A DNA stretch of 64,000 nucleotides, taken from contig NC_003552.1 in assembly GCF_000007345.1 (NCBI RefSeq), positions 2,046,001 to 2,110,000 on the forward strand, read 5' to 3'. The DNA is from Methanosarcina acetivorans C2A (GTDB lineage: Archaea > Halobacteriota > Methanosarcinia > Methanosarcinales > Methanosarcinaceae). The notes beneath the pieces are model-generated. The model made no database searches, was not told the origin of the DNA, and saw only the letters and a program-made list of their open reading frames with translations. The position numbers and the translations under genes are program-made. Below are positions 43,620 through 47,015 of the stretch, piece by piece (within the stretch, counting starts at the first letter, position 1; every line of letters begins with the position of its first letter).

Positions 43620-43865
43620 TCAGGCTTTAGCTGTGACTTCAAGGACTTCCTGAGCGATCTGGATAAGCCTGAACCAGGTATTCAGGGCAGAACGCAGGGA
43701 AACCGCATCTTCGGCTTTAACCGTAAGTACAAGGCGATCAGCGCCTTTAAGGGTCAGCCCTATTTTTGATCTTTCAGAAAAGTTCTCGTTAAGTTCCGGA
43801 AGGACAGCCTGATAGATCTTCTCGGCAGTTTCGGTTTCAAATGTAAACTCTGCGGAAAGTTTCAA
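43620..43865 (-). CDS. pcc1: KEOPS complex subunit Pcc1
   Basis: Pcc1 is the dimerising subunit of KEOPS, which makes the N6-threonylcarbamoyl adenosine of ANN-decoding tRNAs. The 81-residue protein has the family's alpha/beta layout: a first strand KLSAEFTFETETAEKIYQAV, a strand GLTLKGADRLVLTVKAEDAVSLRSALNTWFRLI-like core and a short C-terminal helix. The start codon is TTG 43865, with AGGAGG seven bases before it. It lies downstream of the Brix gene on the same strand (about 130 bases), the usual archaeal neighbour order, but the ribosomal protein and rpoP genes normally upstream are absent here. The protein is cytoplasmic. Confidence 0.88.
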   Translation of the reverse strand: MKLSAEFTFETETAEKIYQAVLPELNENFSERSKIGLTLKGADRLVLTVKAEDAVSLRSALNTWFRLIQIAQEVLEVTAKA

Positions 43866-44470: not shown

Positions 44471-44922
44471 ACTTCCCCTGACGAGATTTTAGTATTTTTC
44501 ACTTTCGCTCCACCTGTAAATCATTTTTATTTCTGCTTACAGTGGAGGTGAGTATATGGGAATACATGATTATCAAGTTAACGTAAGCTTCCGCGGATAA
44601 AAGAGAGAATACGGACTGCAGGATATTCTGGAATAATAAGTCTATTCTGAATTTTGAAAATTATCTTTTTGCCGAAGGTTTGAAACTTCCTGGTAAAAAT
44701 ATATGACTACTTTGAACATTATTTCAGAAACTACCAGAAAATATTTTTTGTAATGGAGGAACTCGATGTTCATCCCACGTTCCGCAATATTTTATAGATT
44801 ATCAACATTTCTCATGATAGCTTTTTTGAGCGGATTAAAGCATTTAGACTTTGAATAAAACTTGATGAAAATCGATATTTTGTCAGTTAAATCGGAAGGA
44901 TTACTCCTCCTTTTTCCTCCAG

Positions 44923-44956
44923 GAACCGTACTTGAAAGTTTCCCTTCACACGGCCC
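44923..44956 (-). ncRNA. Group II intron domain V motif
   Basis: On the minus strand this 34-base hairpin folds as expected for domain V: lower stem GGGCCGTG with TACGGTTC (8 bp, three G-T pairs), a two-base AG bulge on the 3' side, upper stem TGAAGG with CTTTCA, and a GAAA tetraloop. Length, bulge and GNRA loop match the family exactly. The catalytic triad, normally AGC or CGC, reads GGC here, which suggests decay. A weak domain VI-like hairpin follows. No reverse transcriptase frame is nearby, so it is an ORF-less or degenerate intron. Confidence 0.65.
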
Positions 44957-45332
44957 GAGTGTTTTCAAATCCTTTCGGTATCAGACTGAGGCAAAGTTTG
45001 AACTCCTGTCCAATCCATTACGGGTTGACAGTCGTTTTTTACCGAATCCTCTACCCTCAATGCCATCGTAATCCCTCAATATAGTCGTACCTATTATGGG
45101 AGCATTTAGGGCTTACCAGTTCCATAATACAAATAATGTGAATACTTAAATTGTAATTTTCTGGTAACAGATAACTCATTAATGTTTTTCTATTGATGAA
45201 ACACAGAAATAAAGAGTTATCTATATTTAATTAACAATACCTTTGATTTTTTTATATGACTTAACCCAAGCTCTGATTTTTAAATCACATAACCTTCTCC
45301 TAAAATTGGATTATGCGTTGAAATTAAAGCGC

Positions 45333-45419: not shown

Positions 45420-45687
45420 TCAGGTCCGATTAGCCTCTTCGGCTGATCGATAACCGGTTGTCTCCCCACAGGCCCGGCTTCTCTAATAAAGACTCTGATT
45501 GTGTTTTTTGCGATATTAGTCCGCTGGCTTTTTTACGACCTATCAACACAATATCGTTTTTATACCCATCCAGTATAAAAATGAGAATTTTTACTTTAAA
45601 ATAGAAAAGTAATGACCCCATATTCTGAAAATCAAACCTGTATGAATATATAATCTATTTTATCACAAATTTTTTCCCCGGTTGTAA

Positions 45688-45821
45688 AGAGTCTATCTGC
45701 AAAGTCAATAATGGCATGTTGCAAAGTTACAACAGGTCTATAATATCCGAATGGTCGCTCCGGTTGCACATCAGCTGTTGTAAAAGTTACAGCAAACAAT
45801 ATGACTTTTTAGATAGACTCT
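45688..45821. mobile_element. 134-bp MITE-like inverted-repeat element
   Basis: The ends AGAGTCTATCTGCAAAGTCA (45688-45707) and TGACTTTTTAGATAGACTCT (45802-45821) are inverted repeats matching at 18 of 20 bases. Inside, a second imperfect inversion involves TTGCAAAGTTACAACAG and CTGTTGTAAAAGTTACAG. There is no coding sequence. Size and structure fit a miniature inverted-repeat transposable element mobilised by a DDE transposase elsewhere in the genome. No clear target duplication was identified. Confidence 0.65.
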
Positions 45822-46461: not shown

Positions 46462-46905
46462 AATATCAAGTATTTCCCACAATCTTTTCTGAAGTATTTT
46501 CTGGCTATCGCCTGAAAACTGTGGTGGTTCTGAGTTTTTAAGGTTATTCGGTTTGACCGGAGGTTAGTTACACTCAATTGCTCTCAGTTTTAGTTGCTCT
46601 TTGTTATCCCCATTTATTCCTATCTTCTTATCAGCCGCTAACGAGAGGCTGGTATGTGTGAATTTTCATGTTCAGGGATTTAACCTAAAAAGGGGAATCA
46701 TATCCTGTAATTGATATTATTGAATTTCCTGTGTCAGGGTCATTTTTAAATTTTGTCACTGTTTCGACGAATTTTTCGTGTTTGGCTTTGTGAGTTCTTT
46801 TTTCATTGAAGGAAGGAAACAAATTCTTACCCTATGACTACTGTATTCTATTCACCTCTTTATTACAAGGGGAGCGCAGAGGGTCACGAATACTCCGATC
46901 TTTAC

Positions 46906-47015
46906 AGGCTGTCCGACAATTACCTCGATAATAAAAGAATTCCTTTTTTGATTTAAGGGCTTATTTGCTTCCTTTTTAGCACTTTTTATTACTATCAATA
47001 ATTGTCGGCCAGCCT
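46906..47015. mobile_element. 110-bp MITE-like inverted-repeat element
   Basis: AGGCTGTCCGACAATTA (46906-46922) and TAATTGTCGGCCAGCCT (46999-47015) are inverted repeats with one mismatch. Similarity continues inward (GATAATAAAAG against TTTTTATTACTATC). There is no coding sequence. The ends differ from those of the 45.7-kb element, so a different transposase family would be involved. Confidence 0.6.

What the first reader, a model, noticed from the sequence alone, without database searches (positions are those of the whole stretch)
44923..44956. Group II intron domain V in a gene-free region
The minus strand shows a 34-base hairpin with 8-bp lower stem, two-base bulge, 6-bp upper stem and GAAA loop, the precise layout of domain V. 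The catalytic triad is GGC rather than AGC/CGC and no reverse transcriptase is present. It may be one of the ORF-less archaeal introns or a relic.
Basis: partly seen in the sequence, partly recalled or inferred. Interest (0 to 1): 0.6.

Follow-up and report, generated by a model that had tools for sequence, protein, structure and literature searches.

The report
Broken group II intron fossil
This is the decayed tail end of a self-splicing intron from a family already known in methane-making archaea; it has lost well over half of its RNA and very probably no longer works, so it is a genomic fossil rather than a new kind of element.

Summary
The minus strand at 44956-44923 is a group II intron domain V with the 8-bp / 2-nt bulge / 6-bp / GAAA layout and a GGC triad. 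It scores 39.3 bits on Rfam RF00029, just under the gathering score of 40.

It is not an intact ORF-less intron. Homology to intact introns runs from 45150 to 44882 (minus). Against these the window copy keeps only positions 320-487 and 651-755. The 5' end with GUGCG, most of domain I, and 163 nt around domain IV are gone.

A 59-bp end of an IS1-family element lies 32 bp before the truncation point. The copy has also decayed: it differs at 20 of 187 positions invariant in nine full-length introns, which themselves differ at 0-8 in leave-one-out.

Best reading: a dead, 5'-truncated relic of the Methanosarcina ORF-less group II introns, a kind in print since 2003 (cited in PMC4424553). Ordinary.

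The parts
44882..45150 (-). Intron relic, 269 nt: intron positions 320-487 (window 45150-44987) joined to 651-755 (window 44986-44882) of the 755-nt family; the first few bases at the 5' edge are uncertain
   Evidence: Alignment with nine full-length introns
44923..44956 (-). Domain V, triad GGC at 44955-44953 (AGC in the other 16 copies of the genome)
44882..44919 (-). Domain VI: bulged A kept at 44888, two of three basal pairs broken; ends in GAC like the intact copies
44986..44987 (-). Junction where 163 nt (positions 488-650, domain IV region by layout) are missing
45183..45241 (-). First 59 bp of a 740-bp IS1-family insertion sequence, cut on the side that faces the intron
45151..45182 (-). 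32 bp between IS end and intron homology, origin not found

Best explanation
A degenerate relic of an ORF-less group II intron. An intron of a family whose intact members still exist in this genome and its relatives once inserted here, presumably moved in trans by the reverse transcriptase of another intron. A deletion running from inside an adjacent IS1-family element into the intron removed its first 319 nt, and another removed 163 nt in the domain IV region. Without its 5' splice site and most of domain I the RNA cannot bind exons or splice, so it has been collecting mutations, among them the A-to-G change in the catalytic triad. Shown: homology, missing parts, the IS end, the excess of changes. 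Inferred: mobilisation in trans, the IS-linked deletion, the order of events, loss of splicing.
For: RF00029 match over the whole model. 106-107 bp at 88.7-89.6% identity to c2, c3 and c4, complete introns of the same genome. Positions 1-319 absent: a search of the genome with positions 1-365 of c3 gives 9 places, none in the window, and c3 against 11.5 kb around the site gives only the two 3' pieces. Relic differs at 20 of 187 columns invariant in nine full-length introns; these differ at 0-8 of 187-195 in leave-one-out, another truncated copy at 20 of 185. 55 of 62 testable consensus pairs kept, against 57 of 61 to 62 of 62 in eight full-length introns. IS1-family end 32 bp from the break, its cut side facing the intron. 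RT-encoding introns present in the genome.
Against: The domain V hairpin itself still pairs at all 14 pairs and differs from c3 in only 3 bases, and one pair of domain VI (44914/44891) changed on both sides, which could be read as lingering constraint. GGC triads occur in three other genomes in domain Vs that score well, so GGC alone does not prove death. No direct test of transcription or splicing.
Confidence: 0.92

Rival explanations
1. Dead on arrival: reverse transcription stopped early during insertion and left a 5'-truncated copy; the IS end next to it is independent of the truncation.
For: Other copies lacking the 5' part exist: L042 (positions 359-764 match) and L093 (546-774 match, none of the 5' part in 8.4 kb upstream).
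Against: The IS1-family end is itself cut only 32 bp away with its cut side facing the intron, which a single deletion explains. No target-site evidence for a truncated insertion. L042 also has a diverged 5' edge, so its break was not placed exactly.
Confidence: 0.25
2. One half of a split group II intron that splices in trans with a 5' half made elsewhere.
For: Orphan 5' pieces of the family exist at C1:4106336-4106484 (positions 6-157), C1:238419-238481 (1-62) and C1:2589878-2589938 (1-61), none near any of the 17 RF00029 matches.
Against: None of the pieces supplies positions 158-319, so no complete domain I results. Decay of the relic, broken domain VI base and no exon ORF at the site.
Confidence: 0.015
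3. A chance hairpin or an unrelated structured RNA.
For: Score under the gathering cut-off.
Against: Sequence homology over 269 nt to complete introns, E about 1e-35 for the best block.
Confidence: 0.001

Closest known systems
ORF-less group II introns c2, c3, c4 of the same genome (L018, L019, L020), very probably among the Methanosarcina acetivorans introns of Dai and Zimmerly 2003 (paper not held; known here only as cited in PMC4424553)
   Same: Domain V and VI sequence (88.7-89.6% over 106-107 bp), the 3' end GAC, no ORF
   Different: The relic lacks positions 1-319 and 488-650, has a GGC triad, and on all 269 shared columns is closer to G001 and G010 (230 identical) than to c3 (208)
Rfam RF00029 Intron_gpII (domains V and VI)
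   Same: Matches the whole model, E 1.3e-5
   Different: 0.7 bit under the gathering score; base of domain VI broken
RT-encoding sibling at C1:5111777-5112253 (L031, L102)
   Same: Shared first 600 nt of the family layout, 77% to the relic over 158 bp
   Different: Has its 5' end and a reverse transcriptase frame

Membership tests
Group II intron, intact and functional | Domain V hairpin with bulge, tetraloop and catalytic triad | tested here: met
   triad is GGC, not AGC or CGC (canonical forms recalled)
Group II intron, intact and functional | Domain VI with bulged branch-point A | tested here: inconclusive
   A kept at 44888, but two of three basal pairs broken and the stem not folded in the relic, unlike c3
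Group II intron, intact and functional | 5' end GUGYG | tested here: not met
   Intact copies begin GTGCG; homology in the window starts at position 320, and no match to positions 1-319 in the window
Group II intron, intact and functional | Complete domain I with exon-binding sites | tested here: not met
   Positions 1-319 missing
Group II intron, intact and functional | Splicing of flanking exons | not testable with these tools
   No RNA data
Relic of the Methanosarcina ORF-less group II intron family | Homology to intact members together with missing domains | tested here: met
Relic of the Methanosarcina ORF-less group II intron family | Excess change at positions invariant in intact members | tested here: met
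   20 of 187 against 0-8 of 187-195

The most novel reading that the evidence does not exclude
The relic is the 3' half of a naturally split group II intron that splices in trans with a distant 5' half in an archaeon, with an active GGC triad.
Probability: 0.015. Interest if true: 0.75.

Novelty: new member of a known kind. Interest (0 to 1): 0.1.

Why it matters
Little on its own. It shows that a domain V search at the curated cut-off can miss a decayed copy, and it adds one fossil to the record of group II intron turnover in Methanosarcina, where complete ORF-less, RT-encoding, truncated and orphan 5' copies occur together.

Tried and rejected
Rfam at the gathering threshold gave nothing; the relaxed search gave the match. 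The weak matches to CRISPR-DR64, sRNA41, SNORD22 and Rev13 (E 3.7-8.7) were taken as chance, and the two plastid domain V families as the same hairpin.

Orthologous site: the 157-aa gene downstream has a match in 29 of 30 genomes of the genus. I compared about 10 kb upstream of it in 9 of these with the own locus. None shares the own DNA upstream of the gene apart from a 127-bp match in G007 far upstream of the relic and, in G004, a truncated intron fragment about 2.3 kb upstream of the gene (L093:8407-8659). No flanking similarity shows that the latter is the same insertion, so the age of the relic was not fixed.

GGC triad elsewhere: one pattern scan found 3 loci, all above the RF00029 cut-off. 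The number of AGC copies under the same pattern was not measured, so rarity is only suggested, and whether the three are intact introns was not settled.

Rows dropped: from the decay count I left out G001b (a near-duplicate of G001a), a third G001 copy, the G004 copy with an insertion (L043) and the RT-encoding sibling; from the consensus fold also c2, because of its insert. The leave-one-out comparison uses eight references for each intact intron and nine for the relic.

Literature: Dai and Zimmerly 2003 and Simon et al. 2008 are not held. Of PMC4424553 and PMC8919778 I saw passages only. Paper searches. Whether this exact fragment is already listed somewhere is unknown.

Searches for tandem repeats gave nothing.

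Full report
What was claimed. A 34-base domain V hairpin on the minus strand at 44956-44923, in a gene-free stretch, with a GGC triad and no reverse transcriptase; either an ORF-less archaeal intron or a relic.

The hairpin is real. It folds with exactly the stated layout and matches all 77 positions of Rfam RF00029 with 39.3 bits, E 1.3e-5, against a gathering score of 40; hence the default scan is silent. The window lies in a single-contig genome of 5,751,492 bases, which is the size I recall for Methanosarcina acetivorans C2A; no call named the organism. The genome holds 17 RF00029 matches, of which this is the weakest and the only one under the cut-off. The 17 domain V hairpins (10 distinct) form standard pairs in 97.1% of cells, with 8 of 14 pairs changed on both sides somewhere; none of 500 shuffles reaches this. 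The window copy alone has G at the first triad position; the other 16 have A.

What it descends from. Three related introns of the same genome (c2 in L018, c3 in L019, c4 in L020) share a block that starts GTGCG and ends after TTACCCGAC, in mostly different flanks; c3 and c4 are 755 nt and c2 carries an insert of about 190 nt. At this length they hold no reverse transcriptase ORF. A sibling at C1:5111777-5112253 shares the first 600 nt and runs on into a reverse transcriptase frame, so proteins that could act in trans exist in the genome.

What is missing. Aligned with the full-length introns, the window copy covers positions 320-487 and 651-755 only, window 45150-44987 and 44986-44882. A genome search with positions 1-365 of c3 found 9 places, none in the window, and c3 against 11.5 kb around the site gave only the two 3' pieces. 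On the 269 shared columns the relic is closest to G001 and G010 (230 identical each) and less close to c3 (208), so over its whole length it belongs to another branch of the family than the three intact copies of its own genome.

How it broke. At 45241-45183, 32 bp before the intron homology, lies the first 59 bp of a 740-bp element present in many copies in the genome. Full copies carry transposase-like frames, and the same 59 bp match a plasmid stretch annotated as an IS1 family transposase at 83%. The cut side of the IS end faces the cut side of the intron, so the simplest history is one deletion from within the IS into the intron. Truncation by an early stop of reverse transcription is the main rival; other truncated or internally deleted copies exist (L042, L093, L060). 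Both lead to the same verdict.

It is decaying. At 187 columns invariant in nine full-length introns the window copy differs at 20. Each of the nine, set against the other eight, differs at 0 to 8 of 187-195. A second truncated copy, in G029, differs at 20 of 185. The comparison is not perfectly even, but the gap is wide. Of 62 consensus pairs with both sides present, 55 pair in the relic, against 57 of 61 to 62 of 62 in eight full-length introns and 56 of 62 in the G029 fragment. In domain VI the bulged A at 44888 survives, but two of three basal pairs are broken, and the basal stem that folds in c3 does not fold here. Against this reading, domain V itself still pairs throughout, and one domain VI pair (44914/44891) changed on both sides.

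The GGC triad. A scan of genome contigs for the GGC form of this domain V shape found 3 loci, one in a Methanosarcinaceae MAG, all over the RF00029 cut-off. GGC is therefore not confined to this relic, but I have no count of AGC forms from the same scan and did not establish whether the three are active.

Verdict. A relic of a known kind. The review PMC4424553 (passages seen) describes nested group II introns in M. acetivorans and cites Dai and Zimmerly 2003, whose title names ORF-less archaeal introns. Nothing here asks for a new mechanism.

Noticed in passing
window 46855-46960, + strand, junction near 46888/46889: An apparently unoccupied target site of a second group II intron family (L009-L012). 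The window reads through GGGGAGCGCAGAGGGTCACG to AATACTCCGATC, whereas in L012 and L010 the same 5' flank is followed by GTGTGCC and about 0.6 kb of intron, whose 3' flank resumes at AATACCCC. The site lies in a hairpin-forming repeat with several copies in the genome; L131 is another uninterrupted copy. The exact junction is uncertain by a base or two.
   Followed up: partly
window 45688-45821: MITE-like element of 134 bp with 20-bp terminal inverted repeats (90% complementary); roughly 15 to 20 partial relatives at 73-87% identity in the genome.
   Followed up: no
window 45425-45560, minus; second copy at C1:5288736-5288869 (L027): A 136-bp stretch repeated once elsewhere at 88% identity, of unknown nature.
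   Followed up: no
C1:4106336-4106484, C1:238419-238481, C1:2589878-2589938 (L104, L105, L106): Orphan 5' ends of the same intron family without a domain V match nearby.
   Followed up: partly
C1:5105045-5112253 (L102) and C1:5706228-5711730 (L103): Clusters of several domain V, intron 5' end and split reverse transcriptase matches, as expected for the nested introns that PMC4424553 mentions for M. acetivorans.
   Followed up: no
L093:8407-8659 (G004): A truncated intron of the same family about 2.3 kb upstream of the orthologue of the window's 157-aa gene; shared origin with the window relic could not be shown.
   Followed up: partly
window 43620-43865, minus: Gene of the Pcc1 family (PF09341, E 2.3e-18) directly after the 157-aa gene, which has no Pfam match but is found in 29 of 30 genomes of the genus.
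   Followed up: no
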